From Lineus longissimus (lineage: Eukaryota > Nemertea > Pilidiophora > Heteronemertea > Lineidae), in assembly GCF_910592395.1 (NCBI RefSeq), contig NC_088322.1, forward strand, positions 13,449,431-13,513,430: a stretch of DNA of 64,000 nucleotides, read 5' to 3'. Position 1 is the stretch's first letter; each line of letters starts with the position of its first letter. Under the pieces are notes generated by a model. The model was given only the letters and a program-made list of their open reading frames with translations, was not told where the DNA came from and made no database searches. Both the position numbers and the translations under genes were made by a program. Shown here piece after piece: positions 6,614 through 41,679 of this stretch.

Positions 6614-6871
6614 ATGACAAAAGCCATAACTTTCCAAAAACTCGGAAAGGTTGTCAACGATATTGCCATATTGCATCCAGACATTGGTTCGCGTGACGTT
6701 ATTTCCCTCCTGGCTTGTGCTATCATGTGTATCAAGCCAAACTGTTCTACAATAAATGTACTGGAGGACGATGAACGTTTTGTTTGTCAAATGAGTAAAA
6801 AGAAGGGAACGTGTATGGAAAAGGAGGAGGAGGTGTGCGCGTATCCAAGCGCTCGAATGTATGAACGTAAG
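6614..6871 (+). CDS. Unit 1, 5' exon: PAN/apple-like cysteine-rich domain
   Basis: This is an 86-codon exon. The ATG at 6614 is chosen because the paralogous exon at 19780-20034 also has an ATG exactly 33 codons before the end of the shared SLL motif. Cysteines follow C-x3-C-x4-C and then two more spaced cysteines (core LLACAIMCIKPNC), which resembles PAN/apple domains; that family assignment is inference. The exon ends MYERK at AAG|GTAAAC, a phase-0 donor. The intron runs 6872-7747 to the acceptor of exon A1. The frame is closed by a stop shortly upstream of the ATG and no signal peptide is visible, so a further 5' exon may exist. Unit 3 has a signal peptide at the equivalent place. Confidence 0.7.
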
Positions 6872-7127
6872 GTAAACCACAGACACGTTTTGTCTTAAGT
6901 CAAGTGTATTGTTGCTCTCTGTTTTATGATATATGCACGTAAGCGTGTTCAATACTTCTACAGGATATTATAATGATATTCTAATTGATCGTTCTTCCGT
7001 TGATCGTTCGAATAGACCCTTTTAAGCGTTTATCTGTACATGTTTGTCCCTCGAATAGTCGATGGAAAATGTATTGCCAATGATAAAAAACACCATTTGA
7101 AACGTTTTATGAAAACTCAAAAATATT

Positions 7128-7158
7128 GTTTTTGTAATGTGGAACACATTACAAAAAC
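7128..7158. repeat. Perfect 14-bp hairpin in the intron of unit 1
   Basis: Arm gtttttgtaatgtg (7128-7141), loop gaa, arm cacattacaaaaac (7145-7158), with all 14 pairs matching. It lies in the intron between the PAN exon and exon A1. The function is unknown. It could be an RNA structure or a transposon relic. Confidence 0.5.
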
Positions 7159-7290
7159 CATAAAACCATAAAACCCTATGACGAAAATTTTGCACGTGAC
7201 TTTGCGCACTTCCGGCTCCCTCGCAGGTCCTTCCGGGAGGGTTGAAGTGCCACGTCGTTCTTGACTTAATAGCGTCATTTGTGTTCTAAT

Positions 7291-7440
7291 CAGGGCCTGT
7301 TGTTCAAAACAAGCTTTGTCACCAGCGCTGTCGTTAGCTTAACTTGGCGTTAAGTTTAAGAGGCTTAACTGCAGGAGACAATGCCAAGTCAGGTTTAATG
7401 CCAACGTTAGTGACAACATTTGTGTAAGCAATTTATACGT
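7291..7440. mobile_element. MITE-like fragment beginning GGCCTGTTGTTCA
   Basis: The start (GGGCCTGTTGTTCAAA) resembles the termini of the element at 15702-15833, and the interior shares words such as ttaatgcca and taagtc. I see only one clear end here, so the right boundary is approximate. It sits in the intron of unit 1. Confidence 0.35.
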
Positions 7441-7747
7441 CTTGACTTACGTCAAATTATTTCACACCCCTTAGTCAGTCGTCCGCAATCGCCCGCCGTT
7501 GTTTTAGGAGTTGCGGTGGCAACACGAATCTTGAAGTGAAATCTTTGGGAAATGCGTAGCACCTTCACAGTAATGCTTTTTGCATTTGAGAAAAATGTAT
7601 TAACGCGCTGATTGAGTGCGGTTTCTCATGAGAACGTTCTTTGTCCAGATTAGTTCTTTCACAGATGATAAAATACCAATTTTAAGTACTCAGGCTATAT
7701 ACAATGTATTGACGACTACTTAACTAACTTATATATGCAAATTACAG

Positions 7748-8722
7748 AGCATGACGTTGATTACATACACACTTCATAAAAAGCGACCATTTATACCCCC
7801 ACTCATAATTACCAAGCGGGATTTTATGTGTTTCGATCGTAAGTCTGGCGGAATAGTGGTGCTAAAACAACCATCTTCGTCACCCTTTTGGAGAGTACTG
7901 GTTTATAAATTGTCTAACAAATCATGCACTATTCAGTACAACACGAAGTTTGCGGATAGGCCATTTGACTTCGTGTTTCCTCATGGAACCTATAAGCACT
8001 TTATCACATTTGCTTGCAAAAACAACAGACCACGATTTCTGCTCTATGAATATACGCAGGGTTCGTTCTTGGGAAAAATTGCTGTTCCCAAAAATGATGT
8101 TTGCTCCAGGGCAGGATTCACTAGACTAAATTTAGTGATTGACATACAACTGTTAGTCGTATGTATCGTCCGTGGTCATCTTAAAGCAACTATATACGAC
8201 CCCGAAGAAATTCACAAAGATGGGAGCTTTACACTCAATCTCAAGAATGGAATTGCAGTCCCTTTGAGAATTGGGCTTAACCTCATGATTATTTATGGTG
8301 ATATCTACCATTTAGGGCTTGTACGCAAGCGGATTAATGTGTTTGCTTATCGATTGAAGAAGATATACGAATCTACCAGATATATAATAAAGCTGGTGAA
8401 ACCAATCAGCATGATAAGCAGGTTTTACGTCAATCCATGGAACGGTCTCTTCTTTATCTTCCAACTTCCTGGGCCTACTGTCATTGCAATGAAAGAAACA
8501 TATGGACCGAAAGCAGGTCTACTCTCTAATGGATCTGGCGACATGACATTTACGGAGATTAGGGCAACTCTTCACCCTTATTCCAACGAAACGTCACCCG
8601 ATAGTTTCATATTTAATCCGTCGGATGGGTCGCTTTTACATCTTGTTGAAGGTCGACGAAAACCCTCGGAAGTGCACCGGCTAACGGAAGTTGAGGTATA
8701 CAAGATTATCGAAGAGTTTTGA
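7748..8722 (+). CDS. Unit 1, terminal exon A1: all-beta, propeller-like domain, family not recognised
   Basis: The exon is 975 nt, 324 codons plus TGA, and begins at ACAG|AGC in phase 0. The ATG at 7751 is the second codon and is probably not the true start, because the paralogue A2 has TTG there and the same AG|AGC junction. Joined to the PAN exon it gives a 410-residue protein. Visible features are KRPFIPP near the N-terminus, a W..LVYKL strand, PKNDVC, a repeated hydrophobic/polar strand pattern and several N-glycosylation sequons (NKS, NGS, NET). Exon A2 (17904-18878) has exactly the same length and aligns throughout; exons B and C align more weakly. AATAAA (8722-8727) overlaps the stop, giving this exon its own polyadenylation signal. 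The beta-propeller fold is inference; no known domain is recognised. Confidence 0.8.
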   Translation, partial: SMTLITYTLHKKRPFIPPLIITKRDFMCFDRKSGGIVVLKQPSSSPFWRVLVYKLSNKSCTIQYNTKFADRPFDFVFPHGTYKHFITFACKNNRPRFLLYEYTQGSFLGKIAVPKNDVCSRAGFTRLNLVIDIQLLVVCIVRGHLKATIYDPEEIHKDGSFTLNLKNGIAVPLRIGLNLMIIYGDIYHLGLVRKRINVFAYRLKKIYESTRYIIKLVKPISMISRFYVNPWNGLFFIFQLPGPTVIAMKETYGPKAGLLSNGSGDMTFTEIRATLHPYSNETSPDSFIFNPSDGSLLHLVEGRRKPSEVHRLTEVEVYKIIEEF

Positions 8723-8727
8723 ATAAA

Positions 8728-9630
8728 AAACTGAATTCTCAGAATAATAATTGACACTTTTATATACTCTACACTCACCGATCGAAGACCGGTTCATTAA
8801 CCGGTTCAAGCCCGCCCCCATGAATACGCATTGAACATGCCAATGTCCCTTCATACTGATTAGCTCAAACTTGTCGGTCTTCAGGTTGTGGTAAGTTGAT
8901 TGACAGTGGTTGGCATTGGGAATGAACTAATCGCTTGTGACCTTTCCACTGGAAATCTATCGGTGGTTATGGTGCAGTTGATCAATAGCCCTGTATTTTA
9001 GCCTAGGTCTATTGGCAACGAATCTTCAATGGAAGACATCGCATTGATAACAAGTAAAATCTATATGGGTCGGCCATTCTGAACTCACACTGTGAAATTG
9101 ATGCAAAGGCGAGTGGCATAACCATCAGACAAATTGGTGCCGCACATCAATTTTCCATCCCGATTGAACAAGAACGACAATGCGCATAATATCTATTCAC
9201 AAACGGCCTTAGATCAGTGGGTCCAGAGGTATGTATCATCCAGACGAGATATCACAATGAGTAACAGGATATATGCTGTCGCTCTGTAAAGAATTATAAC
9301 ATTAAGTATTCGCAAATCCAGCAAAGTGCAATAATTGCATGTACGTACATGTATATTACCAAACATTGAGATTTCGTCTTTAATCCACTTGATATTATTT
9401 TAGTTGCATAGGATTACCAATGCACCAACGCGCCAATCGGGGCATGCTTCGATAATAACACATAGCCTCAAGACGACCCGACCAGATAGATTGATAATCT
9501 ACAATCGGCGTTCGCTTTCAGTGTGTGTACGTTACCGCGTACGCTGAATCTTGTCACTAGTTTTCTCCGAAATATTGTCCTAATGTTGAATAACAGCATT
9601 ATAGACTAAAGAGTCACCTTTTCATTTTAG
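8728..9630. other. Spacer between terminal exons A1 and B1, no PAN-like exon
   Basis: No plus-strand frame longer than about 60 codons and no cysteine-rich PAN-like segment is present. If B1 is expressed with an N-terminal domain it must use the PAN exon at 6614-6871 or one outside this interval. The right end is a good acceptor, ttttcattttag. Confidence 0.55.
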
Positions 9631-10644
9631 GTTACACACGTCCTCAAATACCATTCGGGTGGTGTTCGCCCCTTCATTCCACCTATCCGACAGCATAGGA
9701 AAAATTTGAATGTTCAATTCCATCCAACCCTTCCTCTTATATTTGTTCACTACACCGAAGAGCCAGTGCCCTGGGAAAGGGCAATTTTCTACCGAGTATG
9801 CCAGAACGATAAGATTTACCGCGTACATTATAACAATTCTTATTACATGCATGGCAATATTCTCCTAGCTTCTCATTATGAAATCCACTTTCCTTTCAAA
9901 ATGTCAGGAACATCAACAGTTTACAGTCGTGCAATAAAGCTGTACGATTTCTCGGCGGGTAAAACGGCAGGCCGTTTGATTTTCCACACAGGAGCAAAAT
10001 GCATTTTCAAAACTAAAGAGTTATATTTGTATACCCTAGACATGGAAAGCTTCACACTACTTTGTCAGTCAAGAAGTGTCAAGGTAACTTTTGTTGTGAC
10101 GCAATATAGCAGCATCTGGACGAAGGATGATGATGGGATGGTTTTGAGATTGCTACACAATGATACAAGGGTAATTACACTCCGACAAACCGACAAAGCA
10201 TTTCACAATATTCTGCTAGAATCTGATGCCTTGACAGTCATAACACGTACGAGTTATATGGAATTTGTCATATTACGGAACGTACGAAACGGTCTGTCAA
10301 TAAAACAGCATTGTACTCTTTTAGTTCAAAACATGCGCTGTCTCATTCCTGTCCACTATCATCATAGAATTTTCGTGGCAAATTGTGATTTATGTCCATC
10401 ACAATTGAGGGCCTTCAAAATAAATTGTTTTGCAAGCAGTCCTTTAATATCTTATTTAAAAGGCGATATTCTCAGACAATTATCTGTAGAAATATACGGG
10501 TCAGTTCGCGTCAATATGACACTATTCAAACAGTACAGGTTAATGGTTGACGAAGAATTGAATATGTTGCAAATAAACCGTCAACAAGATACACTAGGGC
10601 GCTCTGAATACAATGGAATTAAGGTATTAAGTAGGATGTTATAA
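9631..10644 (+). CDS. Unit 1, terminal exon B1: all-beta domain, paralogue of A1
   Basis: The exon is 1014 nt, 337 codons plus TAA. It starts at CATTTTAG|GTT in phase 0; an in-frame TAG immediately before the junction shows the frame does not continue upstream. Seven residues into the exon is the tyrosine that also follows the junction by seven residues in A1, A2 and B2, and RPFIPP follows as in A1. B-type signatures are FHPTLP.IFV.YTEEP.PW, a KLYD.S.G...GRL strand and the ending YNGIKVLSRM. B2 (16766-17791) is clearly its closest relative. AATAAA at 10643-10648 overlaps the stop. No ATG suitable as a start precedes the conserved region inside the exon, so an upstream exon is needed. Joined to the unit 1 PAN exon the product would be 423 residues. 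Confidence 0.75.
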   Translation, partial: VTHVLKYHSGGVRPFIPPIRQHRKNLNVQFHPTLPLIFVHYTEEPVPWERAIFYRVCQNDKIYRVHYNNSYYMHGNILLASHYEIHFPFKMSGTSTVYSRAIKLYDFSAGKTAGRLIFHTGAKCIFKTKELYLYTLDMESFTLLCQSRSVKVTFVVTQYSSIWTKDDDGMVLRLLHNDTRVITLRQTDKAFHNILLESDALTVITRTSYMEFVILRNVRNGLSIKQHCTLLVQNMRCLIPVHYHHRIFVANCDLCPSQLRAFKINCFASSPLISYLKGDILRQLSVEIYGSVRVNMTLFKQYRLMVDEELNMLQINRQQDTLGRSEYNGIKVLSRML

Positions 10645-10648
10645 TAAA

Positions 10649-11084
10649 CATCATTGTTAGCTATACATTTTTCATAGCTGAATCTGTCTGTCGGGTTGAA
10701 ACCTTCCTCAAGTTCATTCGATAGTCAGGAGCAACTTTTTACCGGAAAACAGTTCAGGATTTAGTTGTCGCCGTTCTGAACGTGAAGCCGTCACTGCCAC
10801 GCATCACAACATTGACTACATTCTCATGAAAACATAGTGTAAAACAATGAAGTTCACTTTGCATACTGTGTTCATGTGGTTTATCATATGAGTCTTTATA
10901 GTCCTCCGAGCAGAAATCAAAACCGATTACTTGGCCCAGAGAACTGTGTTGCTCACAGTCAAACTAATGAGTTCACGACAAGCGTCAACAACATTCAATG
11001 GATTCATGTAATTGTGCCGGACAGGTTCAGTTAAGTAACAGGGTGGTTGTGCCGATTAGTCAATATTTCATCGGACTAGTTGAC
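10649..11084. other. Convergent spacer between unit 1 and unit 3
   Basis: The 3' ends of exons B1 (+) and C (-) face each other across this spacer and the repeat block that follows. I see no gene in it. Confidence 0.5.
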
Positions 11085-11450
11085 TTTTTCCCATATTTGT
11101 GACAGTCGAGCCAGTTGCAGTTTATCTAGTGTAGAATTTGCAATGTGTTGGGTTTTAAGACCGAGGCCGCGGCTCATAACAATCCTTCCCTGACCATTTA
11201 CAAGCCAGTTGTAGTCTATCTGGTGAAGATTACGCAATGTATTATGTATTAAGATCGGAGCCATGGTTTCCCAGCAGTACATCCCTCACTATTTACAAGC
11301 CAGTATTTGGTGGAGAATGGAAGATGCATTGTGTCTTTATGAGCGAAGTTATGGACTCACAGCTTCCCTCACTGTTCGCAAGCCACCTGCCGTCTTTCTG
11401 GTGACGTATGCTTTGTGAGGAACAAAGCCATGGTTTCTCAACAATAATCA
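11085..11450 (-). repeat. Decayed tandem repeat (about 83-95 bp period) downstream of exon C
   Basis: On the plus strand the word caagccag or a close variant recurs at about 11107, 11201, 11296 and 11379, each time surrounded by related sequence (ccctcact before it, atggtttc further on). Read on the minus strand the units give related peptides of the form W-L-V/A-N-S/G-E/Q-G in shifting frames. The C-terminal codons of exon C (near 11658) encode a similar peptide, YLQNEG. The array therefore looks like decayed duplications of the 3' coding end of exon C. Confidence 0.5.
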
Positions 11451-11616
11451 TTTGTATAATAAGCTAGGGTGCAGAGGGAGGCTATATTTACTTATACATG
11501 AGGTTTGATGTTGGCCACTATCGAAACAACTGCCGGAGATTAGTTGATGAGGGTTGGAGGATGTATGCCTGACGAACTCTGACATGGGTAGCCGGTCCAT
11601 GCCTTGTGAGATGCTG

Positions 11617-12573
11617 TTAAAAGTATGTCGTCATCAACTCACAATTGCCTTCGTTCTGTAAGTAACCTGTCGGACTCCACACCTCCACAATTAGTCTTGT
11701 TCTAACTCGCTTCCCCTTCTTTCTGGCCAATGTAACCAAGAGCAGATTCCCATCTCTATCAAGACTCAAGCATCGCAGCCTTGATTTGAAAACAACTTTC
11801 CGGTTACCCAGATATGTCTGTCCAGTCTTAAGGCTATTTATAGGAAATTTCCTAAAATTGAATAAGTCTACCCGTAATTCGGTCACCAACCAAAGCGCAC
11901 TTTGGCACATATATGAGAAAAAGCGATTCCGATTCCCAACCTCAACCAGCACATTTGGTTTTAATGGTCGTTTCCCTCGATAGTCTGGTATGCAATTATA
12001 TGCAATTGTGGCTTTCGCCGATAGAATATAAAAAAAACACTTTCTGGTGATCCAGTGAAGTCTGAAAAAAAAGGTATTCGCCAAAAGTATCGCAATTTTT
12101 GTCTTATTTTTCAGCAAGACATCATCACCTATATTTTCGCAGTTATAGATGTCAACGAAGCTCCTTGTCGCTAGATGAATAACAACATATTCTCCCGTTT
12201 CTGAAAAGGTGAATTGAAGGATCTGTGACCAATAGTATGTTTGTATTTGGAATTTAATTCTTCCAGAGATTCTTCCTTCACTAGAATCGAAGAGTAGATA
12301 CCATTTCTTGTCATCATTTGCAAGTATAACATACTGTGAATAATTCGGTGTCATTAAATTGCTTTTCAATATGTTATAGGTATATTTTTTTCTGTAGCTT
12401 TCCGAAGAAGTGTCGAATACATAGCCTGTGATGACATGAACACTCGTATTGACTCCGTGTTTTCGGTCGTAAATGACCTTAGATTGATATAGAAGCCATG
12501 TCCCAGTGGCAGGAATTAACGTTTTACTTATCCACTTGGTGGCCGCAGAGCCCAGTTGTCTAAATGACCGTGA
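11617..12573 (-). CDS. Unit 3, terminal exon C: all-beta, propeller-like domain
   Basis: The exon is 957 nt, 318 codons plus TAA. The frame is open up to about 12660, but the start is placed at the acceptor CTACTGCCAG|TCA (phase 0), because from there to a conserved Trp is 26 residues, against 27 in A2, and the LIP..G.W motif then aligns with VIPDNGFW of A2. There is no ATG upstream of the conserved region in this exon. The middle aligns with A and B (a Y-rich strand, then GRISGRIKF matching GSFLGKIAV of A1). The C-terminus, DRDGNLLLV followed by VEVWSPTG, reads like an NHL-type blade. Joined to the PAN exon at 15220-15561 it gives a 432-residue, probably secreted protein. Exon C is the most diverged of the five paralogues. 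Confidence 0.72.
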   Translation of the reverse strand, partial: SRSFRQLGSAATKWISKTLIPATGTWLLYQSKVIYDRKHGVNTSVHVITGYVFDTSSESYRKKYTYNILKSNLMTPNYSQYVILANDDKKWYLLFDSSEGRISGRIKFQIQTYYWSQILQFTFSETGEYVVIHLATRSFVDIYNCENIGDDVLLKNKTKIAILLANTFFFRLHWITRKCFFYILSAKATIAYNCIPDYRGKRPLKPNVLVEVGNRNRFFSYMCQSALWLVTELRVDLFNFRKFPINSLKTGQTYLGNRKVVFKSRLRCLSLDRDGNLLLVTLARKKGKRVRTRLIVEVWSPTGYLQNEGNCELMTTYF

Positions 12574-15219
12574 CTGGCAGTAGCTAAAGGATATTGGTCG
12601 GGAATGCTGTACATTAGAAAGGATGAAATAAGCACATGATGCTGGCGCTAAAGTTGTTTATATACCTCGTTATAGACCATACAAACGACATTGCCCATGT
12701 GGGGCTGATATTAATAGTGAGAAAACTTATATCTATTTTGACTTGATGTTTGTGAGAGATTTACATGACATTTAACACGTTTTCAGCTCTTTACAACTTT
12801 TTTTTAAAAATCTGATACAAATTGTGAGCTTACATCATTTTGTATTTTCCACATTCATTACGACCTTTGTCACAATAGGTGTTCTTACTAAGATGACAAA
12901 AGTAGCCATGGATGCGCTTCACAAAACACCGAGTAATTCTGTGTATAAAAGTCAGACACTAAATGAAAGTTAATTAAAGCCAACAAAAATAATCCCTAAG
13001 GCAGATTATGTCGTTAGCAGGAATTAATAGTCATTAGAGCCATGTTCTGGCACATTTACATATATGTGACCTTTATTAATATTGAAAAAATATTTATCAT
13101 TCGACCTTTATTCGTTTATATACATAGGTTAAAATAACATAATCACAAAGTTTACGCCGTTTTCCAAGAAAAGTTTCCAAATAATGGAACAATTGCATAA
13201 CAAGCATTGTGATTTGGCCCATAAAATTTCCTAAATCGCTTATTCGGGTCAATCAAAATGGCCTTAGTTACCGGACTTTTTCCTGCATCTTTTCGATGCA
13301 TCGCGAAGTATACAAAACAAGGTGCGCATGTGTCCGCGGATTGAACGCGGTCAATGAATCAAAGATAAGTTAGCAGCAATGATGTCATAAACCTCGCATC
13401 AACCTCGCAAGGTGTGTCACGACAACGACCGAAATATTATCTCAAGTCGAACATGGGAGTGAACATGGAAGTATTTCTGTTTTTCACTGCGCTTGGGAGG
13501 GACTCGTGTAGACCGTTTTTCACATTATCTAATGCCGTGGTCACACTGGGGTTTTAACACGAATTGAATTCGAATTAAAACGTTGATACGTATTGGGGCG
13601 TCACACTCAATTCGGTTCATACCGATCTCAATCCGCTTTAACCAACACGGTTCTTAAACCGAATTGAATGCGAATCAGCTAATCCGAATCAACGAAACCG
13701 TATTAAGATTTCAAGTGTGACGCGCTTGATACGAATTAAGGTTTTCGATCGCACTGCGCATGCGCCCGGCGCATAGAAGGTGACCTTTGACCGCGGGAAC
13801 TAGTGCTCCGAACTAGTTAACTGATGTATTTAAATGATCTCATTAACTCAAATCGTTTTTCGTTATGCCATAGAATTGGGAAAAATCAACTCCCTTGCAC
13901 GTGACTTGCATTTCCATTTCCTGGCAAGGTATGTTGCCGCCGGTTCATTGGTCAAAGGTACGCTGGTCAGCAACATCGTCGCGGCGGGGTTTTCCCCGGT
14001 TTTGGCCTCGTTTTCGAGGGCGAGGCCGGGATTCTCCGCATTTAGCGACGGTGGTGTTGACTCGCTGAGGACACTCCTCTTTGACCCGAACTTTGGCAAT
14101 AGGCATGGCCGGGAGATGGATGTTCAAGCACCTTACGCGATTTTAACTTGTTAATAATGACTGTGTGATACTGTGATATTATATACTTATATGTTTTGTA
14201 CTTGTAAATTTTATTCTCCCATATGGGAGGTTAATAACTAATAATAATAGATGGCGCGTTTTAAACCGATTTGAATGCGTATTCGGGCCAGTGTGACGCG
14301 ACCGTTCTGAAACTGGATTAACCAATTCGTATTCCGGAGAGCGCTCTACGGAGTTCGGTTTCAATTCGCATCCAGTGTGAACACACCATAATACACTTTC
14401 CAGTCGAATTAGGGCATGAAGGGATCGACTTCCGTAGTTCTGTTGCATCAATTACATGTATTTACACTTTCCGGTTGAACTTGAGAGCAACTTATGATGT
14501 TCTGTTTTTTATAGTGGGTGAAGGTATCGGTTTGCCAAAGAAAAATACGTGCTTGCCTGAAGAGGAAATGACGACACAAAAGAAACAGACCAAAATATCA
14601 GTTCATTTTGACGGGCGTAAGACCCGCATTGATTATTTTTACCGCTTCCTATCTAGTATGAGGAAGTCAATTTCACGTTTATTGAGTTACTGCTCATCTC
14701 AATAGTAGGCAGACCAAATTTCATGGTTGACGCAAAGAGTCGTTTGCGCACCGACCCCGAGTAATGATCTTCAAAACATTTGTAACTAAATGAATGATTT
14801 TCCCCGCCCACAGACCGAGGCAGTCTGGCGTAAGAACATTGATTACTATCGTTAGGTTTCATAACCATGTGACATGACATAGTCAGGCCTACACATAATC
14901 ATCATATTATACCCTATCGGGCCTCATTGCAATGTCACCCAAAGACGTTACGCAAGGATAACCTGTTTTTCAATAGGCCTGGCTGAACGATAACCGTATG
15001 GGTGTGCGAGGTCGAAAGAGCGATACGAAGATTTGGCTGGATTTTGCCGGGTAGAATTTTGCCAAATCACACTTATTTGTTCGCGTAGTCCTACGTAAAG
15101 ACCATCATCATCATGTTACTTAGCCCAATGGCCGTAGTGGTAACGGGGTAGTGTTGACAAAATTAGTCTCCACTGAGGTTTGTTTTATTTTTGTGGCCGT
15201 ATAAGTTACATGTACCTAC
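12574..15219 (-). other. Inferred large intron of unit 3
   Basis: The 2.6-kb interval between the unit 3 PAN-exon donor (AGG|GTAGGT) and the exon C acceptor. It contains an 855-bp transposon (13534-14388) and no exon I can support. The frames near 13.83-14.15 kb lie inside that element. Confidence 0.55.
13534..14388. mobile_element. Non-autonomous DNA transposon with TCACACTGG termini, 855 bp
   Basis: The left end GCCGTGGTCACACTGG and right end CCAGTGTGAACACACCA are imperfect inverted repeats flanked by a 4-bp duplication TAAT (13530-13533 and 14389-14392). Sub-terminal sequence on both sides is full of degenerate cgaattgaat-type words in inverted arrangement. No transposase is visible. The superfamily is uncertain. 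It lies in the unit 3 intron. Confidence 0.7.
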
Positions 15220-15561
15220 CCTCAGCATATATAACTTGAGCTTCGGCGAACTAGCTATAAGGGACAAATGACACTTGACTGGCTTTTCACTGCAGATGCA
15301 TCGCCTTGCCTTCGGAAAACAACCAAACGACAGGTTGTCTTTCAAAGCATTAGAGCGACACAGCCTTCCACAATCCAGCAGTGACCTTGCTGGCCACCTG
15401 GAGTCGGATTTCAGAACCACTCTTTCGATGACGTCTTTGATGAAGTGTGTCTTCATCATGGAAACATCTCCGCAACAACTTTGAATACAAGTAATGAATG
15501 CAATGCAGGTAAACAAAATATTTCTGTCGCTTTTGCGCAGTGCTAGCATAATCTGTAACAT
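15220..15561 (-). CDS. Unit 3, 5' exon: signal peptide plus PAN/apple-like domain
   Basis: A 114-codon exon beginning at ATG 15561-15559. Residues about 13-31 form a hydrophobic signal peptide (core ILFTCIAFITCI), with likely cleavage after the CCG that follows. The PAN-like part has SLLDCGRLC matching SLLACAIMC and SLLACAVLC of units 1 and 2, then further cysteines (GC, RCIC, KC). It ends LYMLR at AGG|GTAGGT in phase 0, at the same place as the MYERK and IFEKK ends of the other two PAN exons. It is the only PAN exon in the locus with a visible export signal. It is predicted to splice to exon C. Confidence 0.75.
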
Positions 15562-15701
15562 CGCGGCCGATACTGTTACACTGTAGAATGAGTTTACTTG
15601 TATTCACCAGAACGAATAAGTGAACATATGTTTTCAAGCTTTTTAGTACACGTATTTTCAAGTTCTGAGACCTCAAAATTTTAAACTGTGTTATGTTTTG
15701 C

Positions 15702-15833
15702 GGGCCTCGGTTGTTCAAGACACGTTACTAATCAAACACCTGGCATTAACACATCTTAGCGTAATCTCCTCTAACTAAGTCAAGTAAGGTCAACGTCAAG
15801 TTATTGACTAACTAACTGGTCCTGAACAGCCGG
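15702..15833. mobile_element. Short MITE, about 130 bp
   Basis: The left end cgggcctcggttgttcaaga and right end gtcctgaacagccgg are imperfect inverted repeats (CCGGCTGTTCAGGAC against CCTCGGTTGTTCAAGAC). A related partial copy is at 7291-7440. No coding capacity. Confidence 0.45.
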
Positions 15834-16765
15834 ATCAATTTATTGAAACCTCAACAAGCTGGAAAATATGTCTGAGAGGAATCATTCACATATTCAAAAC
15901 GTTCACTTGTATCAACACCTGCAGGTCTAAAAGGTCCTCGAAAGTAACTAAGCCCGACATTCGTTGAACAGGGAGAACAGCCGCTGCAGCTCCGAACATC
16001 CCTGGCAATGGAGAATGGACTGCATCTGCCAAAAATTCGTGAATCGTTCTGGGAGAAAAAGTGGGCATATGTCGGTATTGTTCGAAGCGTGTGGGAGAGG
16101 ACACAGTACACAGATGTAACTGCATACAGACGATATAGTCGAAAAGTAGATCATAATGATAGAACTGTAAACTGTACGGAAAGATGACTGTCCTTGATCC
16201 ACCGCGAGATTGGATTGAAGAAATGAAGCTTTTCCATGTGCCCTTTCTCTCCATGCCCCAACATATTCACTTGTATCAACATATCTCGAAGGGCTTCAAA
16301 AGTAGCTATTGTGATTGCTCCCAGCACAAGAATCGTATGATTTGGTGATTTAGTCATATCGGTATTCTGCAACCAGTACAGCATCACTCTCTGATCTGAA
16401 TATTGATTAAGGATATTTTTTGTGTCGGTTTCATAATCGATATAATTGATCTTAGCATAGAAAGTGATTATTGATCAGCAGCAGTGTTGCAGTGTTGTTT
16501 TAATCATTTTCAAATCGAATGCAAGTAGAAATACATTACAAATTTGAAAGTATTTAGTACGGTGTAGTTATTGTTTAGTAAAGGAATAAATCAAAGTCGG
16601 TGTAACGGTTTTAAATGTCCTAGGACAAAATGTCCGCGCTAGAGGGTTCTATATGTTTTTAATAGCCGGGTACCGTGTAAAAAATCCCGGCTGAAACTTC
16701 TGTCAACCGGGCTGAAACCGATTGATGAGCAGAATGATTACAATGCAGCCTTATAGTGAGAAACG

Positions 16766-17791
16766 TTAAGTCATTCTACTGTACACTTTTACCCCATTAT
16801 ACGGTCCGCTTCCAATTTTGTTTTGTTGCTGATGCATCTGCAAGACGTTCCATTGATGGTCGAATACAACCATGTGCATTTTAAATTGTAACCGATCTAT
16901 GCGCTTTAAACCATTCAATACAATATGTAATTGTCTGACGGCGTCATACTTTTTATACAAATGTTTTCCTGGGAAACATTTTATGCGGAAGCAATTAACA
17001 TACGGTTTGGATAAGTCGAAATTCGCGAGGAAAATTCCAAAACGATAATTAACTGGAAAAACCCTAGTTATGAACATATTAGTCAGTGACAATGTCCAGT
17101 TCTGATTCTTGCCCAGTCCGTTACGTCCAATGTTATTGTAGATAAAGTATTTTATCATATTGTTATTTATAATGACTACTACATCAACAGATTCAAGGTG
17201 AAACATGGCCAGTGGTGGTTGTTTTTTAAAGGGAAACACCTTTGTGTCATTGAACACAAGTTTGCAAACTAACTCGTTGCCCACTTTGTACCAGAGACTT
17301 TTGTATAACGTCAAAGTAATCACCAACGCAGACTTGGAACTTTTCGACTCGCAGAAGAAAGAAAACGTGTTCATATCTAGAGTGTACAACCACACTCTAA
17401 TGTTAGTAAAAGAACATTTTTCTGTAGAAGGAAACTCTAAACGACCTGTAAAGTTCCCCAATGAAATATCATAAAGCTTAACATCACGGCTGAAAATTTT
17501 TGTTCTGCCCGATCTCTTGAAATAGATGCAAATGAGAAAATGCGACGCCAAACGAATGGAAGAAGCCATTCGACTAAAGTAAGAATAGTTATAATGTACG
17601 CGGTAAGTCTGTTCACTTGAGTATAACTTGTAGAAAATGATTCGTTTCCAAGGAATCGGCTCCTCAGTATATGTGACAAATATGAAAGGAAGTGTTGGGT
17701 GGAAATGAAGACCCAATGCCTTTCTATTCGAATGAATAGTTGGGATAAACGAGAGAAAACGCGACGGGCGATATTTGAGAAGAGATACACC
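16766..17791 (-). CDS. Unit 2, terminal exon B2: paralogue of B1
   Basis: The exon is 1026 nt, 341 codons plus TAA. It begins at TTTCTAG|GGT in phase 0; the TAG of the acceptor closes the frame upstream. LKY follows the junction at the same distance as in B1, then FIP, then the B-type block FHPTLPFIFVTYTEEPIPW, a KLYDIS.G strand and the ending YNGVKVYSRM. There is no ATG before the conserved region; the first codon of the aligned core is TTG. Only 112 bases separate the junction from the A2 stop codon, so there is no room for a promoter and a private PAN exon. This supports its being an alternative terminal exon of unit 2. No AATAAA is seen at the stop, unlike B1. Confidence 0.75.
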   Translation of the reverse strand, partial: GVSLLKYRPSRFLSFIPTIHSNRKALGLHFHPTLPFIFVTYTEEPIPWKRIIFYKLYSSEQTYRVHYNYSYFSRMASSIRLASHFLICIYFKRSGRTKIFSRDVKLYDISLGNFTGRLEFPSTEKCSFTNIRVWLYTLDMNTFSFFCESKSSKSALVITLTLYKSLWYKVGNELVCKLVFNDTKVFPFKKQPPLAMFHLESVDVVVIINNNMIKYFIYNNIGRNGLGKNQNWTLSLTNMFITRVFPVNYRFGIFLANFDLSKPYVNCFRIKCFPGKHLYKKYDAVRQLHIVLNGLKRIDRLQFKMHMVVFDHQWNVLQMHQQQNKIGSGPYNGVKVYSRMT

Positions 17792-17903
17792 CTAGAAATG
17801 TGAAAGATACAAAGAAAACATTTCGAACTAATGCAGCAGCAAAAAACGAATAACTCCAAGACCATCCTCCCGGTACTGATACGGACCAATAGAGCCGAAG
17901 GTT

Positions 17904-18878
17904 TCATTTTGTTGTGTATACACCAACTGCAGTGTATCGTTCTTCCTTTTTAATATTTTGGTTTGGGGGTCCTATGACACGCATTAGTGACCCATCAGAC
18001 GGATGAAGAAGAAACATTACGTCTTTGCTCGGTGGTAACAAGGAAATTCTCGTTTCCCTAAATGTCATCAAACCAGACCCGTTTCTAGATAGGCCAAGCT
18101 GTGGCTCGTAAATCTCTTTCAAAGCAACACCAGTCCCCCCAGAAGCGGCGATATAAAACACGTAGAAGCAACCATGCCTAGGGTTGTACACAAACCTGAA
18201 TAAATTGACCGGTGGCATTAGCTTGATGAAATAATTCACTGGTTTGTACATAGTTTCCTTACGATAAGCTATAAGATAACATCGACGGTAACTATTTCTG
18301 TTACTATCGTAAATAGCATCATTGATGACATCAAGGCCACCGTTTACACGCTTGGAAGGCACATGAGCGCCACTCTCTAGTACAAGTTGAAAACTCCCAT
18401 TGTTAATAACTTCTCTTGAGCCATAAAATGTTACTACTAGACGACCAAGGTTTTTACATTGAACTACTATTTTCTGCCCAATTCCAATAATAACTTGAAA
18501 GAAGCCAGATAAGTAGCAAGTATCATTTTTTGGAATCAGAAGTGTACCTGAGAAAACTCCTTTTATGATGTCGTAGAAGTGATAAGTGTACCTGAATCTG
18601 CTGTTCACACTATAGAATGCAAGGAACTGCTTGTAATTAGCTGTTCCTGATGTTCCTTTGTATTTCTTCATAAAGAGTTGACTTTTGTATTGAATTCCGT
18701 AAGAGGTGTTACCCAGTTGGTAAACGACAACGTGATGATACGGTGAGGTTGTTGGCCTCTGCAAAGTTAGTATTCTGCCAGACTTCGTATCGAAGGTCCA
18801 AAATCCATTATCGGGTATAACAAGCGGCGGTATGAATGTGAACCGTTTATGATATCTATATAGAATCCTTGTCAAGCT
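17904..18878 (-). CDS. Unit 2, terminal exon A2: paralogue of A1
   Basis: The exon is 975 nt, 324 codons plus TGA, exactly the length of A1. It starts at GTTAG|AGC in phase 0, followed by TTG-ACA where A1 has ATG-ACG, so the exon has no start codon of its own. Shared with A1 are FIPP, FDTKSGRI against FDRKSGGI, the VVYQL/LVYKL strand, IPKNDTC/VPKNDVC, NGSF, NGSG.MTF.E and PSDGSL near the C-terminus. N-glycosylation sequons include NTS, NDT and NGS. Joined to the PAN exon at 19780-20034 it gives 409 residues. No polyadenylation signal occurs between its stop and the B2 acceptor, so transcripts ending in A2 must either run on into B2 or use a non-canonical signal. Confidence 0.8.
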   Translation of the reverse strand, partial: SLTRILYRYHKRFTFIPPLVIPDNGFWTFDTKSGRILTLQRPTTSPYHHVVVYQLGNTSYGIQYKSQLFMKKYKGTSGTANYKQFLAFYSVNSRFRYTYHFYDIIKGVFSGTLLIPKNDTCYLSGFFQVIIGIGQKIVVQCKNLGRLVVTFYGSREVINNGSFQLVLESGAHVPSKRVNGGLDVINDAIYDSNRNSYRRCYLIAYRKETMYKPVNYFIKLMPPVNLFRFVYNPRHGCFYVFYIAASGGTGVALKEIYEPQLGLSRNGSGLMTFRETRISLLPPSKDVMFLLHPSDGSLMRVIGPPNQNIKKEERYTAVGVYTTK

Positions 18879-19779
18879 CTAACATTATTGAAAGTTATAC
18901 ATGTACATGTAGAATCGCCTAGTAGATTAAAAAAGAGGTGGTGGCACAAAAAGGTATTGCCCCTTCGTAACCTTAAAAACCGTAAAAATTTTCCTACGAG
19001 ATATCAGTATCAGCGACGACACCGACTATTCATGAGATTTGAAGAAACCAGCTATCGATTAGGAAAAGCGTCTTTTTAGCTGCGGTTTTTTGAAAAAAAA
19101 CAATTTATGCTAACACGTAGCAGCTTGTAAGTGATGCATTTCGCATTAAAATTAGCAAAATGTTTTTTTGAATCGTGGATTTTCACATTTTGGCAAATTT
19201 TAATCGAAATCTCCGTGGAGATGACCTATTTTACTTTTTTCCCAATAGCCAAAGCAAGCAGTAATACCTATCTCAAATGCAAATTCAGACCTTATGGTCC
19301 TGGGAGCCTCATCTTGGTGCTTTCAGATTGCAACTGCGGCACATAGAAATCCGAACAGTCAGGTTATCAGCGTCCTAGTGTATAGAGAACTCATCGCCCA
19401 GGATTCGATGGTGAAAACATTGCAGTGAAATTTGACCTCGAATTGCAATATTTACACCTTCTTTGCCATGAAGAAGGATACTCCCACTCGAGATTGGGAT
19501 GTCTCCTTTAATAATGTTAATAATGATAATAATAATGATAATGATAATCACCCAGCCTATCCAGAAACCTTCCTGGAGAACCAAGGGCAGCCACAAGGAC
19601 ATTTCAGGCCAGTTGAGAGTTACAAAGTGGCACCGGCCGGGTATCGAACCCCGATCACAAGACCAACACTCAACCGTTGTGCCACCGCGCTCTCCAATGT
19701 TGTAAGTTCAAATAGAGTGTTCAGTCATCGAGCTTTAAACCAGGACGTAAATGTATCACGAAAAGCGATTTACAATTAC
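18879..19779 (-). other. Inferred intron of unit 2 containing a SINE
   Basis: This 901-base interval between donor AAG|GTAATT and acceptor TTAG|AGC is close in length to the matching 876-base intron of unit 1. The only recognisable content is the SINE at about 19507-19696. Confidence 0.55.
19507..19696 (-). mobile_element. tRNA-derived SINE
   Basis: On the minus strand the element starts GGAGAGCGCGGTGGCACAAC, which carries an A-box-like sequence, followed about 35 bases later by the B box GGTTCGATACC. It ends in an AT-rich microsatellite of the ATTATC/ATTATT type. This is the standard layout of a tRNA-derived SINE with a simple-repeat tail. Confidence 0.75.
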
Positions 19780-20034
19780 CTTTTTTTCAAAAATCCGGGA
19801 ACCTGCCTTCGTATAAGCCTCCACCTTCTCCATACACGTTCCCTTCTTCTTACTCCTCTGGCACACGAAGCGTGCATTCTCCACGAGGACATTAATTGTC
19901 GAACAGTTCGGTTGGATACACAAGACTGCACAAGCCAAGAGAGAAACAGCATCTTGCGAACCAATATCTGGTAGAGATATGGCCATATCGACCACCACCT
20001 TCTCGAACTTTCCATAGTTGCCACTTTCAGCCAT
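19780..20034 (-). CDS. Unit 2, 5' exon: PAN/apple-like domain
   Basis: An 85-codon exon starting at ATG 20034 in a good context (AAAAATGG). The cysteine pattern and sequence match the unit 1 PAN exon: LPDIGS against HPDIGS, SLLACAVLCIQPNC, STINVL, RFVCQ and SKKKGTCMEK are shared. It ends IFEKK at AAG|GTAATT, a phase-0 donor homologous to that of unit 1. An in-frame TGA lies about nine codons before the ATG, so the ATG is either the true start or preceded by an unrecognised acceptor. No signal peptide is visible in this exon. Confidence 0.72.
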
Positions 20035-20240: not shown

Positions 20241-21544
20241 TAAATTTCTATTTTAAACGACCCCCAACTAAACATTGAAATGTGATGTTTGACTTCTGCT
20301 TCAATATTTGTACTAACCAAAAGCACTTCTGGTTGCAAAACCATAACAACCACCGCCAGAACGAGGCACATTTCGTCATACACTGAAAATAGTGTTATAT
20401 GTACAGTACATGTACGCAACGTGTTGCACCCAAGGCGCTTTAGGATTGTCTACGACATTGATCACTTCGTGCAGCCTCACGTCAACACGATACTTTATTG
20501 TTTCATTTTTTTGTTCAAAAAACGACCGAAGCCTAACGAATCGTGGTCATCCTTGGTCCGTTATCTGTATCGTTCCCTGCAAAAAAATCTGCTGAAGACT
20601 GCTGAAGTCGTTGGCAAAGCGAGCGCGAGTTGGAGGGGGAAAGGCAAGGTTTGATCATCGATGCATTTACAATGTTGAAGTTTTTATCGTACCCATTATA
20701 AGGCAAACTCAATGCATGTTGAATTGTCCGTGTTGTTCGAAGAGTATTGGGACTGACCAGCAACACAGATAAATCGGCATGATTGAGTGAGCTCATCGTG
20801 AAGTTATGCTTGGAGAGGACATGTCAAAACAATTTGGCAACAGCACTTTTTACAAGTATCTCACATCCATCTTATTTGTGCCAAGCATCACATCCGTCTT
20901 ATCAGGTCGGTATGCTTCTCCGTATTAATCTGACGAGGGGGTTTATCGAGGTTGGTTGGTCTGCAATGTTTTGCCCAAACAACTCCTTTAAACCTGCGCG
21001 TACCACTGAACCTGCGGCGTAGTGATACATCAAACCATGCATGGAATATGACAATGGGAGGAAAGAAATGTGCATTGCTAATGAAGTATTAGCCTCGTGT
21101 GGCGAAATGACTTTTCTTTTCTTTTTGGACACCCTGTAGCCTATTTTAAGGTAGGCCTATATTGGTAAGCTGGTTGAAGTTGAGAGTTTTTATGGCAACA
21201 TGAATTATGTGCTTATTACATCAGTAATGGACTTTCCTATCAATATTAAATTGTGCTTTAGAAGTTGACTCTCTGTTACATGTAGGAACATTGTTAGGTG
21301 ATTCAGGAGGAATAAGGATTCAACTAGGCCTGTTGTGATTTGTGCTGGAAACTCCCCGTTATGAAAGGTTTTGGGGTATGAGCTAATGTGGGGTGTGTGA
21401 GCAGAAGGCAGGGTCACTTTGGAAGTCACCGAGGACCGAGCAGGACCTGTTTTACGGAAGGAGCTCCGACTTATATCCTCGCGTTGGTGCCGCTGTGACT
21501 GCGAGACTGCAGTGTACCGTTCTTGGCGTTGGTGCCGTACGAGT

Positions 21545-22170
21545 ATGGTAGGCGGGAGGGGACATAAATCAGAATATATCGGCCGAATAATTACTTGCGC
21601 CGCAAAGGCCTCCCGCGAATGATGCGCCGCAACAATGCCCCGCTAAAACACGCCGCAAAAGAATGCGCCGTAAAAATCTCACCGCGTGACCCAATTTAAA
21701 CCAATCAGGAGCCAAGGACGGTGTGATTTTTGCGGCAGAGGTATTTTCGCGGGAGTCTTCTGCACGATTTGCGGGGGACTTGTGCAAATTTCGACACTTT
21801 AGCGGCGCACTTCTTTACTTCTTTAACCAATCAGAAACATCGCTACTTTCCAACTTATTGGCGGCGGGTTCACGAAGTTACGATGTCTCTGATTGGTTAA
21901 AGAAGTGCGCCGCTAAAGTGTCGAAATTTGCATAGTCCCCCGCAAATCGTGCAGAAGACTCCCGCGAAAATACCTCTGCCGCAAAATTCAAACCGTCCTT
22001 AGCTCCTGATTGGTTTAAATTGGGTCACGCGGCAAGATTTTTACGGCGCATTCTTTTGCGGCGTGTTTTTAGCGGGGCATTGTTGCGGCGCATCATTCGC
22101 GGGAGGCCTTTGCGGCGCAAGTTATTAATCGGCCGATATATTCTGATTTATGTCCCCTCCCGCCTACCAT
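21545..22170. mobile_element. Foldback element, 626 bp, with 8-bp target duplication (hAT-like)
   Basis: Two long inverted arms of about 290 bases each begin ATGGTAGGCGGGAGG and end with its complement, separated by a short unpaired centre near 21845-21875. Flanks gtacgagt (21537-21544) and atacgagt (22171-22178) form an 8-bp duplication with one mismatch, the length typical of hAT elements. The arms are rich in gcggcgc-type words and CCAATCAG motifs. No transposase is present. The short frames across it arise from the palindrome. Confidence 0.8.
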
Positions 22171-22510
22171 ATACGAGTCGTCGTGAAACGCGGCTAGACC
22201 ACTGTCGTGGACGTGGTCAGAATCTGTTACCAGCGTTGGTGCCGTTGATATCCTTTTCAATACATTCCTGCCTGAGGGCATAGCGGGTCGAAGCACCCAA
22301 TTCCTGCACTGTGTCTCTTCGAGGTTCGGCCGGCCGAATGTCATCCGGTGTTTATAATAATTCGTTGCTCATACCCACACCGGAACTGTCCGGAGGTACC
22401 GATAGCCTTGATGCACTTTGTCACACCTCGGTAGAAATTGTGGCTATCGTTTGGATTATACAGTTATAGCAACTTGGGTTTATGAGAACTGTTGCCTCAC
22501 TGTCGGTATT

Positions 22511-22640: not shown

Positions 22641-22958
22641 TGAGATATCAATTTCTATGCTACAACACCAGTCTAAAAGCTTGATAGATTTTATGCATAA
22701 TCCACAGAGAATCGGCTTTCGAAACATTTCATACAAACCTAAGGGGTTCTCCAAACCTCCGTGGTCAAAATGAGGATGATACATTATCCGTTTTAAAAAT
22801 GAAACATTGTTAACAAGGCGTTTCAGAATTACTCCTTTTGCGCTGTGTAGTAGAAACCGGCGCGGTCAACGAGAAATGCAGAGACAATGCTAAAATCAAG
22901 TCGAGCAGCGTGTCGATCTTTCTCACTTCCCCACTTACTTTCTTTGGCGAACACAGAT

Positions 22959-23179
22959 GTGACCCGCTCTACCAAAACTAGGCGCTTGTCGCATCTGAAC
23001 TCGACAGGTTGATACGGACTTGTTGTTCATTTCCCTATTGTAGACCTTTTGTGAAATCTATTACAAACTGATTTGGTCACATTTCACAAAAGGTCTACAA
23101 TAGGGAAATGAACAACAAGTCCGTATCAACCTGTCAACTTCAGATGCGACAAGCGCCTAGTTTTGGTAGAGCGGGTCAC
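22959..23179. mobile_element. Near-perfect foldback element, 221 bp, with 4-bp target duplication
   Basis: Two 99-base arms (22959-23057 and 23081-23179) are inverted copies with very few mismatches, enclosing a 23-base loop. The ends are GTGACCCGCTCTACC and its complement, flanked by AGAT on both sides (22955-22958 and 23180-23183). The small divergence between the arms implies a young insertion or active maintenance of the palindrome. Confidence 0.8.
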
Positions 23180-23183
23180 AGAT

Positions 23184-25828
23184 ATAGTTTGGGACAATCA
23201 TTTGCCGTCTGTGCGGCGAAAATAAAAGCAGCATGGTACATCGTATCTTCTTTAGACCAGTGGAGACGCGATTAAACTCGACTTTCCCCGAAGGTAGGCG
23301 CTCCGGACAGATCGAAATGCAAATGATAAAGGACGATCGATTCACTGCAACAACGAAAATGCATTGAGCCGCTCTACGATAAAACTTGTGATAATGGCGG
23401 CTGTCCAGAGAATTTGTCTTATACAAAATCATGATTTCACCGCATATTAGTAGTTTCAAGTGAAAGTGGCATTGAGAAAAACTGGTACAGAAATGCAAAA
23501 GCAACCGCGGCGACGCTGGCGTCATAGGCGTCGCAACAGGGGCACAGTTGTATTGCGATCAACTCTCTCAACCTGACTATCTGCTATCGCGGTGGCGTTA
23601 CCTTTAGATCCCGCGGCCGCGAGTGTATACCGGTACATTTGTTTAGACGAACCTTGTAAGGGGTAGCACTGTTGTTCCGACGAGGTCTTGGGTGGAGACA
23701 GTGTTAGATCAATTCGGTCACTTCAGTACATTGCCAAGAACTTAAACAAAATCGCGCTAGAGGTTCTATCGATCTCGCAACAAACGGATAAGGGACCCTT
23801 CCGCCCATATTGAAACCAGATCTTAGCATCCGTCCAGAACGAAGCCACTTTATCTCGTTTTATCAGGCATTGCCCTATAGAGATATCGGAGCAAATTAGA
23901 TGGAAAAGTCAGGAACTCACACCTGTTCTTCAAAGTATCACCTTTTAGAAATCCTCTTTGCCTGTTTCTAGAATCCCGATAAAAACATCACATTTAAGGA
24001 AAAATTGAGAACCAAGTTAGGCTGGATTCAAGCCTCAATACAAAATCGATGGTTGACTGTATTCACATTTTGGTATATATGCCTTAAAAATGACACTATG
24101 GTGAATGTGGACTTCGCGGACAGCCGCAGGCCTCTGTAACATCGAAACGTTGGTTATAACATTGCCCAGTAAGTTTTATTGTTTGAATTCAATATTGAGA
24201 GTTTTGTAAAGTAACATATTGATTTTGTCTCGTATCAATTGAGAAGGTGAACTATGGGTCAGACTCACATTGATTATCAGCCATAAACAGAGTGTATTAT
24301 TTTATACATGTGACCAAGTATGGATTATTCTATTCAAGTGATGTAATGGCAGAGTATACGGCAAATCCCTTTGTTCTCTATGTTTCGGTACAATGCCTTG
24401 CCCAAATCCCCACGCGAAGGTTGAGAACCAACCACTCATAATACATACCCTGGCGAGTACTTTACGCGTGACGAGGATATAATTATCTAATCATCACAAG
24501 ATTCACTCATTTAACGGAAGTTCGGTTGTTCTGGTTGAAAAACACATTCCCATTATGGCTCCCCGATGAGACCAGAAGGAAATTTGAACTATTTAAAGTT
24601 AAGAAGGCACGGATTTGAGTAAATGATTTTAATCTATGTTAATAAAAACAAAGTAAGACAAATAAGTGACGAGAAGTTTATAAACCCTATTAATATATAC
24701 ATGTACCATTAATAGCACCATTCAGAAAACAATCTACGAAATAGAAATAGCAATTTAACCTGGAATTCAACCTCTACCACTGCACTGGGATGCGCTGCAA
24801 TCGCTACGTTTTTTTTTCATTGATACCAATTTCAAGTAATCCTGCCAAAGACATAAGGCAACAACGAGCTTAATCAAGTAAGAAAATAAACAGTCAAATA
24901 TCAAATCAATCTACAACAAGAGTTTTACACTTCTTCAAGGTCGTGTTTTTGTGAAATCCAGTTCACAACTATTGCAACCATGCAATACAGATCAGCACAT
25001 CGCCCAGTGCTAGGTCCAATGTCCCGTCGGCATTTAAATGACCTGGTTCGAAGACGGCCGTAGGCCTAATTGCCTATAAGATAACGCAAAAGCATGTTAA
25101 TAACTACTCCTCGCAAGGTCTTCCCGTGGCCAAAATATCAAATATCATTCCTTTTATTATTTTTCAGCCAGCACAAGAACTTTCTACACGACCAATGCAC
25201 TGTGCCAGTCAAAATGTTATGATGTTACCGAGACACAGTCATGATGACGTCGCTCAGTTGAGACGCACTGCATTTGCAATCATCGCATTATCCATTGGAA
25301 TTAAGCCTCTGAACAATGTAAGTGTACAAAATTGAATAAATGTACATGTATACATTTTTTTACATTGAAGCACTGTCATCTGATTATACGGGATGTCCTC
25401 GTGAATACCGGTAGCCTATCCGTTCTGTACTGTACTAGGACCATACATTCCGGAGGTCCACAAAAGGGCCACCAGTAGGACTGAGTAGGCCCTGGCCCCG
25501 CCGTTATTGTGACTTGTCATGCACAATCTGCAAAGCGCCGCTTCCCATACCACCCTGGAACATTGACTAACAAAACATTAGAAATATCCGGTGGTGAGGC
25601 TTACAGATCTTTAGCCAATGACTGTGACGACCTGTGCATACAATAACATTTAAATAACACTGTTCATGGAGTATAAATAACCAATTATAATACATGTACA
25701 TGCAATATATGGCGACCTGTACATACAGACCATACACTACATACACATGTTGGGAAACGATATGGAAGACCCTTCAAATTTCATCCAATTCTACAAAAAC
25801 AAAAAACTCTCCAACTGCCCTTTTCTTC
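23184..25828. other. Intergenic region, nothing recognisable
   Basis: AT-rich sequence with only short frames lacking known domains or exon structure. Confidence 0.5.
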
Positions 25829-41596: not shown

Positions 41597-41679
41597 CTAG
41601 TGACTATGTGCAGAACATAATCGTGACTGTGAGACTTCTACTCTTCTCTTCTCTCTCGCCCGCTCTGCACTTCGATTAG

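What the first reader, a model, noticed from the sequence alone, without database searches (positions are those of the whole stretch)
6614..20034. A three-unit locus of an unrecognised PAN plus propeller-like gene family in inverted arrangement
Seen: three PAN-like 5' exons all end at phase-0 donors at the same alignment position. Five long 3' exons (975, 975, 1014, 1026 and 957 nt) all start at phase-0 AG acceptors six residues or an equivalent distance before aligned positions, and share FIPP/LIP, W..VVY and G..G.L strands. The layout is PAN-A-B (+) facing PAN-A-B (-), with PAN-C (-) between them. Inference: one ancestral two-exon gene was duplicated, its terminal exon was duplicated again, and the whole unit was copied in inverted orientation. 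I know no named family with this architecture.
Basis: partly seen in the sequence, partly recalled or inferred. Interest (0 to 1): 0.9.

Follow-up and report, generated by a model that had tools for sequence, protein, structure and literature searches.

The report
Dispersed genes with paired alternative ends
This stretch of an animal genome holds two copies of a gene unit found at dozens of places in that genome, in which one small cysteine-rich first exon sits in front of two different but related large last exons, so that each gene can probably make two proteins that differ in their main domain.

Summary
The exons are real. PAN1, PAN2, A1, A2, B1, B2 and C lie where stated with phase-0 boundaries; the pairs PAN1/PAN2, A1/A2 and B1/B2 show purifying selection. 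Exon A2 matches 78 places in the 391-Mb host genome (animal, unnamed), the window's own two included. Of 38 unit records compared, 37 have a PAN-like exon in view and 33 of these have two or more terminal-exon matches behind it (A-B, B-A, once B-A-B). In the window A2 and B2 are 112 nt apart, leaving no room for another first exon. This is an old, dispersed multigene family, most simply genes with alternative terminal exons. A and B are homologous over their length (profile-profile E 9e-24). No significant PDB match was found for A or B profiles, nor Pfam match for 27 A members and the window's B1 and B2. 'Propeller' is not supported: models are low-confidence and a 49-residue period failed in deeper alignments. 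The first exon has five conserved cysteines and weak PAN matches, but no convincing signal peptide. C is a distant relative; PAN3 is uncertain. Splicing and function were not testable; a recognition-type repertoire is inference.

The parts
6614..6871 (+). PAN1: 5' coding exon from its own ATG to a phase-0 donor AAG|GTAAAC; no hydrophobic leader by eye
   Evidence: upstream leader exon sought without a convincing one
7748..8722 (+). A1: terminal exon of class A, phase-0 acceptor ATTACAG|AGC (weak), stop TGA overlapped by AATAAA; an ATG is the second codon of the exon
9631..10644 (+). B1: terminal exon of class B, phase-0 acceptor TTTTAG|GTT with in-frame TAG directly upstream, stop TAA overlapped by AATAAA
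11617..12606 (-). C: distant relative of A and B; phase-0 AG at 12606 (TGTACAG|CAT) or at 12573 (CTGCCAG|TCA)
   Evidence: (12573 only)
15220..15561 (-). PAN3: cysteine-rich 5' exon with a hydrophobic, leader-like N terminus (by eye), phase-0 donor AGG|GTAGGT; kinship to PAN1/PAN2 uncertain
16766..17791 (-). B2: terminal exon of class B, strong phase-0 acceptor TTTCTAG|GGT with in-frame TAG directly upstream, 112 nt behind the A2 stop
17904..18878 (-). A2: terminal exon of class A, phase-0 acceptor ATGTTAG|AGC (weak) with in-frame TAG directly upstream, stop TGA
19780..20034 (-). PAN2: 5' coding exon from its own ATG to a phase-0 donor AAG|GTAATT; no hydrophobic leader by eye

Best explanation
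The window holds two of the dozens of dispersed copies of one gene unit. Each unit has one 5' coding exon (a five-cysteine, PAN-like domain of about 76-90 residues that seems to start at its own ATG without a signal peptide) and, behind it on the same strand, usually two (once three) paralogous terminal exons of about 320-340 residues, each with its own phase-0 acceptor and its own stop. The single phase-0 donor can be joined to either terminal exon, so each locus makes two proteins with the same N-terminal domain and a different C-terminal domain (A or B). The terminal exon was duplicated into A and B before the units spread, and units were then copied as wholes. Shown: the exon anatomy, its recurrence, homology of A and B, co-divergence, purifying selection between the window's two units. 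Inferred: that splicing is alternative and mutually exclusive. Inferred with less support: that the constant exon is a shared assembly or docking module and the faster-diverging terminal exons are the binding part of a repertoire of recognition proteins.
For: Recurrence: exon A2 matches 78 places at E<=0.01 in the own genome, the window's two included; 72 of 78 lie in an open frame of at least 298 residues; some weak ones are class B (one in L031 was labelled B). Of 38 unit records (40 fetched loci less 5 that overlap others or the window, L031 giving two, plus the window's two), 24 are P-A-B, 7 P-B-A, 1 P-A-B with B split by a frame change, 1 P-B-A-B, 4 P-A only, 1 B-A with no PAN-like exon in view; some of the terminal-exon matches are partial because the stretch ends. 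Donor: GT exactly at the end of the PAN-like model in 38 of 40 exon records; the other two are one gene seen twice with GT one codon later. Acceptor: a phase-0 AG within -12 to +3 codons of the model start in 69 of 70 terminal exons; by my arithmetic chance alone would give that in about 64%, so the better sign is that in 48 of 70 it sits 3 or 4 codons before the model start. Stop codons follow 60 of 65 terminal exons that come near the model end; the other 5 run off the stretch. Gaps between neighbouring terminal exons (model edge to model edge): 14 of 36 under 350 nt and 33 of 36 under 1000 nt, one of the 36 being the split B of L027; in the window A2 stop to B2 acceptor is 112 nt. A2, B1 and B2 have an in-frame TAG directly upstream and their first Met at residue 70, 73 and 75, so they need an upstream exon. 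Co-divergence over 26 units: Mantel 0.70, 0.62, 0.79, 0 of 500 permutations each; mean identity PAN-like 0.49, A 0.30, B 0.26. A against B: E 9e-24 over nearly the full length.
Against: No transcript was available, so no junction is shown. A1 and A2 acceptors score poorly on a generic matrix, though AG at the same place recurs in paralogs. A1 has an ATG as its second codon, so it alone could start by itself. No AATAAA lies between the A2 stop and the B2 acceptor, so A2 mRNAs would need another 3' end. One unit (L038, first) shows only one terminal exon before the next PAN-like exon; three more P-A records end within 1.5 kb of the edge of the stretch. Cysteine pairs conserved in A (27 of 27) and B (25 and 22 of 26) suggest an extracellular place, which the missing signal peptide contradicts; no signal-peptide predictor was run, and a few paralogs (such as L004, L008, L011, L014) have hydrophobic residues near the ATG. 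A/B labels are ambiguous for the most divergent copies (L031, L032 changed). There are no functional data.
Confidence: 0.72

Rival explanations
1. A and B belong to one bicistronic or intron-retaining transcript: the PAN-like exon joins A, and B is translated from the same mRNA or is only an untranslated tail.
For: A2-B2 gap of 112 nt without AATAAA; 14 of 36 gaps under 350 nt.
Against: B1 and B2 have a fair and a strong acceptor with an in-frame TAG directly before it and no early Met; an AG at a similar place recurs before most terminal exons; B1/B2 are under purifying selection. The order B-A also occurs, in 7 of 38 records with a PAN-like exon.
Confidence: 0.1
2. A and B are last exons of separate neighbouring genes; the second has its own first exon not recognised here.
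For: A1 stop to B1 acceptor is 908 nt; 3 of 36 gaps exceed 1 kb.
Against: 14 of 36 gaps under 350 nt; no PAN-like match at E<=1e-3 between terminal exons of a unit in the 38 records; no leader-exon candidate in the A1-B1 gap.
Confidence: 0.08
3. Part of the family is decaying and the second terminal exon is a relic.
For: 4 of 78 places carry stops (C16:13372160, C16:13927406, C16:14685965, C8:11031948); B in L027 is split over two frames; dN is about equal to dS between some recent C20 copies.
Against: 72 of 78 places lie in an open frame of at least 298 residues; both classes are present across old, diverged units, with dN/dS 0.19-0.29 in the window.
Confidence: 0.07

Closest known systems
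Drosophila pip, tandem mutually exclusive terminal exons (PMC9013439, passages seen)
   Different: One sulfotransferase gene with eight clusters, given in that paper among examples in UTRs; here two diverged coding classes at each of dozens of loci, domain of unknown fold, splicing not shown.
Drosophila PGRP-LC 3' variable regions (PMC9013439, passage seen)
   Same: One shared 5' part with mutually exclusive 3' variable regions.
   Different: A single gene whose alternative regions code for a known recognition domain (recalled); here a multigene family without a known recognition domain.
WSC-domain AA5 copper radical oxidases (PMC13094651, passages seen)
   Same: A PAN/apple-fold domain N-terminal to a large beta domain (seven-bladed propeller plus Ig-like domain).
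   Different: Fungal enzymes with an eight-cysteine WSC domain; A and B show no such match in Pfam or PDB searches and are single exons of about 320-340 residues.
PAN domain family (PMC9249922, abstract and passages seen)
   Same: A core of 4-6 cysteines beginning C-x3-C as HGF C70 and C74; PAN_1, PAN_2 and PAN_4 appear as weak hits in a few diverged members.
   Different: Weak hits only (best E 0.009); no convincing signal peptide; spacing of the later cysteines differs from HGF.

Membership tests
PAN/apple domain | Core of 4-6 strictly conserved cysteines | tested here: met
   Five cysteine columns conserved in 26-28 of the 28 aligned members; definition from PMC9249922
PAN/apple domain | Clear match to a PAN profile | tested here: inconclusive
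   PAN_1 in 2 of 28 members (best E 0.009), PAN_4 and PAN_2 in 1 each; unrelated families reach 0.0019 and 0.0071 in single members; the window's three exons have no PAN hit up to E 10
PAN/apple domain | Extracellular setting (signal peptide) | tested here: inconclusive
   By eye PAN1, PAN2 and most paralogs start at an ATG without a leader. A loose scan gave 3 frames upstream of PAN1 and 1 upstream of PAN2, and no convincing exon shared by the two. No predictor was run. PAN3 has a leader-like N terminus
PAN/apple domain | PAN fold | not tested
Beta-propeller (NHL, WD40, kelch and the like) | Match to a propeller-repeat profile or to a solved propeller by sequence | tested here: not met
   No such hit in 27 A members against Pfam, in the window's B1 and B2, or for A and B profiles against PDB sequences; other B members were not scanned against Pfam
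Beta-propeller (NHL, WD40, kelch and the like) | Repeated four-stranded blades, seen as fold or period | tested here: inconclusive
   All-beta models but pLDDT 33 and 36. Period 49: residue shuffles 0/300 for A+B+C and 9/300 for A+B, block shuffles 6/300 by beta propensity and 26/300 by hydropathy, but 131/500, 366/500 and joint 270/500 with deep alignments
Genes with tandem alternative terminal exons | Homologous terminal exons in tandem, same phase, each with its own stop | tested here: met
Genes with tandem alternative terminal exons | Only one terminal exon per mature transcript | not testable with these tools
   No transcripts available

The most novel reading that the evidence does not exclude
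A large animal multigene family of leaderless PAN-like proteins in which nearly every locus has kept a matched pair of diverged terminal exons (A and B) under one first exon for a very long time. If both isoforms are made, each locus would supply two partner proteins, perhaps a heteromeric pair, giving a locus-encoded repertoire of paired recognition or structural proteins whose terminal domain has no counterpart in Pfam or PDB by the searches made here.
Probability: 0.3. Interest if true: 0.75.

Novelty: new variant of a known kind. Interest (0 to 1): 0.6.

Why it matters
Alternative terminal exons are known from single genes such as pip and PGRP-LC. A family in which the same pair is kept at dozens of dispersed loci would be a genome-wide use of that device, with a terminal domain that the Pfam and PDB searches made here do not explain. 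It gives a clean system to ask why a pair of isoforms is kept together, and the recent C20 cluster, where some pairs have dN about equal to dS, could show how such repertoires diversify.

Tried and rejected
Propeller fold: two structure predictions gave pLDDT 33.1 and 36.3; fold searches on them gave no match at E<=0.001 and are not used as evidence. The 49-residue period seen in single sequences and shallow alignments (no single family significant) was not reproduced with deep alignments and is dropped. A signal-peptide exon: a loose scan gave 3 frames upstream of PAN1, 1 upstream of PAN2, 2 between B2 and PAN3 and none between A1 and B1; comparing short frames upstream of PAN1 and PAN2 gave only short matches (best E 8e-4 over 10 residues) that I take for chance. 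Comparison with the TRIM/NHL gene of the window gave nothing significant. Plasmid, virus and prokaryote collections gave no relatives; PHROGs gave no significant hit, nor did PDB sequences (best E 0.32). The iterated profile AA_1 took in B exons, so its A-B scores are circular; for A-B only, made from separate sets, is cited as deep evidence. The scores for C are therefore for a mixed A/B profile (6e-4; hhalign 1.9e-5) and the B profile (3e-4; hhalign 7e-4). Literature: in the listed rows of searches (2 of 2, 5 of 5, 15 of 438, 12 of 45, 20 of 94 and 1 of 1 papers) I saw no paper on this family; passages were seen in PMC13094651, PMC3269628, PMC9249922 and PMC9013439, listings only for the rest. 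Search searches failed.
Full report
Observation. The eight exons are in the sequence as described. The long frames (324-346 codons stop to stop) exceed the longest in 60 Markov copies of the region (210). Between the window's two units the third codon position changes most, and NG86 dN/dS is about 0.17 (PAN-like), 0.29 (A) and 0.19 (B), with dS from 1.4 to 2.5. Detectable DNA similarity between the two arms is left only in the PAN-like core (78% over 184 bp) and in a piece of B (74% over 131 bp). The arms are therefore old, not a recent inverted duplication. A2 also has a slightly closer copy 0.74 Mb away on the same contig (42%, against 39% for A1).

Boundaries. The three 5' exons end at phase-0 GT donors in the top 0.4-1.4% of all GT in the window. 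The acceptor of B2 is strong, that of B1 fair, those of A1 and A2 weak. A2, B1 and B2 have an in-frame TAG formed by the acceptor itself and no Met before residue 70, so they are unlikely to start on their own. A1 has an ATG as its second codon, so for A1 this argument does not hold.

The genome. The window lies in a genome of 391 Mb in 30 contigs. I take it for an animal because of tubulin, tetraspanin-like, rhodopsin-type receptor and NHL-repeat frames nearby. The size and the contig lengths seen (13.6-25.6 Mb) would suit an amphioxus; that is a guess from memory, not a result. Exon A2 finds 78 places at E<=0.01, the window's own two included; 72 lie in an open frame of at least 298 residues and 4 contain stops; the tool calls such counts lower bounds. 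Some of the weak places are class B. Forty loci were read (20, 20). After leaving out five that overlap the window or other loci and adding the window, 38 unit records remain: 24 P-A-B, 7 P-B-A, 1 P-B-A-B, 1 P-A-B with B split by a frame change, 4 P-A, and 1 B-A with no PAN-like exon in view. Of the four P-A records, L007, L020 and the second unit of L031 end within 1.5 kb of the edge of the stretch; the first unit of L038 shows one terminal exon only. The donor is GT at the model end in 38 of 40 PAN-like records; the two others are one gene with GT a codon later. A phase-0 AG lies within -12 to +3 codons of the model start in 69 of 70 terminal exons, which chance alone would often give; in 48 of 70 it is 3 or 4 codons before the model start. 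A stop follows 60 of the 65 that come near the model end; the other 5 run off the stretch.

Relations. Separate sets of 27 A and 26 B exons align over nearly their whole length at E 9e-24. Within the window alone the A-B signal is uneven. Both classes share a cysteine pair at the same aligned place (A 117/137 in 27 of 27; B 123/144 in 25 and 22 of 26). Over 26 units, PAN-like exon, A and B diverge together (Mantel 0.70, 0.62, 0.79; 0 of 500 permutations each), and the PAN-like exon is the most conserved (mean identity 0.49 against 0.30 and 0.26). So the terminal exon was most likely duplicated first and units were copied afterwards. C is a distant relative (0 and 1 of 1000 shuffles with an A+B profile, but 42 and 38 with the B profile alone; hhalign 1.9e-5 against a mixed A/B profile). 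PAN3 is uncertain: 6 and 4 of 1000 shuffles, hhalign 2e-4, but E 71 with the deep PAN-like profile. By eye PAN3 has a leader-like N terminus; PAN1, PAN2 and most paralogs do not.

Identity of the domains. The 5' exon has five conserved cysteines, and three separate PAN models appear as weak hits among 28 members (best E 0.009), beside unrelated weak hits of the same strength or better. That makes 'PAN-like' fair but not proven. For A and B nothing significant is found: Pfam for 27 A members and the window's B1 and B2, PDB sequences for both profiles. 'Propeller' rests on low-confidence all-beta models and a period that failed in deeper alignments. I would call it an unplaced domain, probably rich in beta strands.

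How it most likely works. With one donor, two terminal exons that each carry an acceptor and a stop, gaps as short as 112 nt and no PAN-like exon between them, alternative terminal exon choice is the simplest reading (0.72). Known single-gene parallels are pip and PGRP-LC (PMC9013439, passages). What the proteins do is open. A constant small module with a faster-diverging large domain in dozens of copies, and recent copies some of which have dN about equal to dS, suits a repertoire of recognition proteins; this is inference. The conserved cysteine pairs without a signal peptide remain unexplained.

Noticed in passing
25821-26191, 30444-30818, 46801-47180: Three copies of a repeat of about 375 bp, 94-97% alike, the third inverted relative to the other two: probably a mobile element.
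   Followed up: no
21544-22171 and 22958-23180: Self-complementary stretches (about 90% and 92%), palindrome or inverted-repeat element.
   Followed up: no
41403-41610: 48-bp tandem repeat, 4.3 copies, 96% matches, adjoining the frame 40620-41405, which follows a rhodopsin-type receptor frame at 39455-40342.
   Followed up: no
43374-45449 (-): Uninterrupted 691-residue frame with an NHL repeat match and a weak RING-type match below its cut-off.
   Followed up: partly
L036:5134-5652 (-): A full PAN-like exon followed by two partial copies of its 3' half, each followed by GT.
   Followed up: partly
L007, L009, L010, L012, L013, L016 (own-genome contig C20, 9.65-9.73 Mb): Cluster of young unit copies. 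Between its two subgroups exon A has dN about equal to dS (e.g. 0.042 and 0.038); within a subgroup dN is lower (e.g. 0.003 and 0.029).
   Followed up: partly
window 8722-8727 and 10643-10648: AATAAA overlaps the stop codon of both A1 and B1; not so at A2, B2 or C (read).
   Followed up: no
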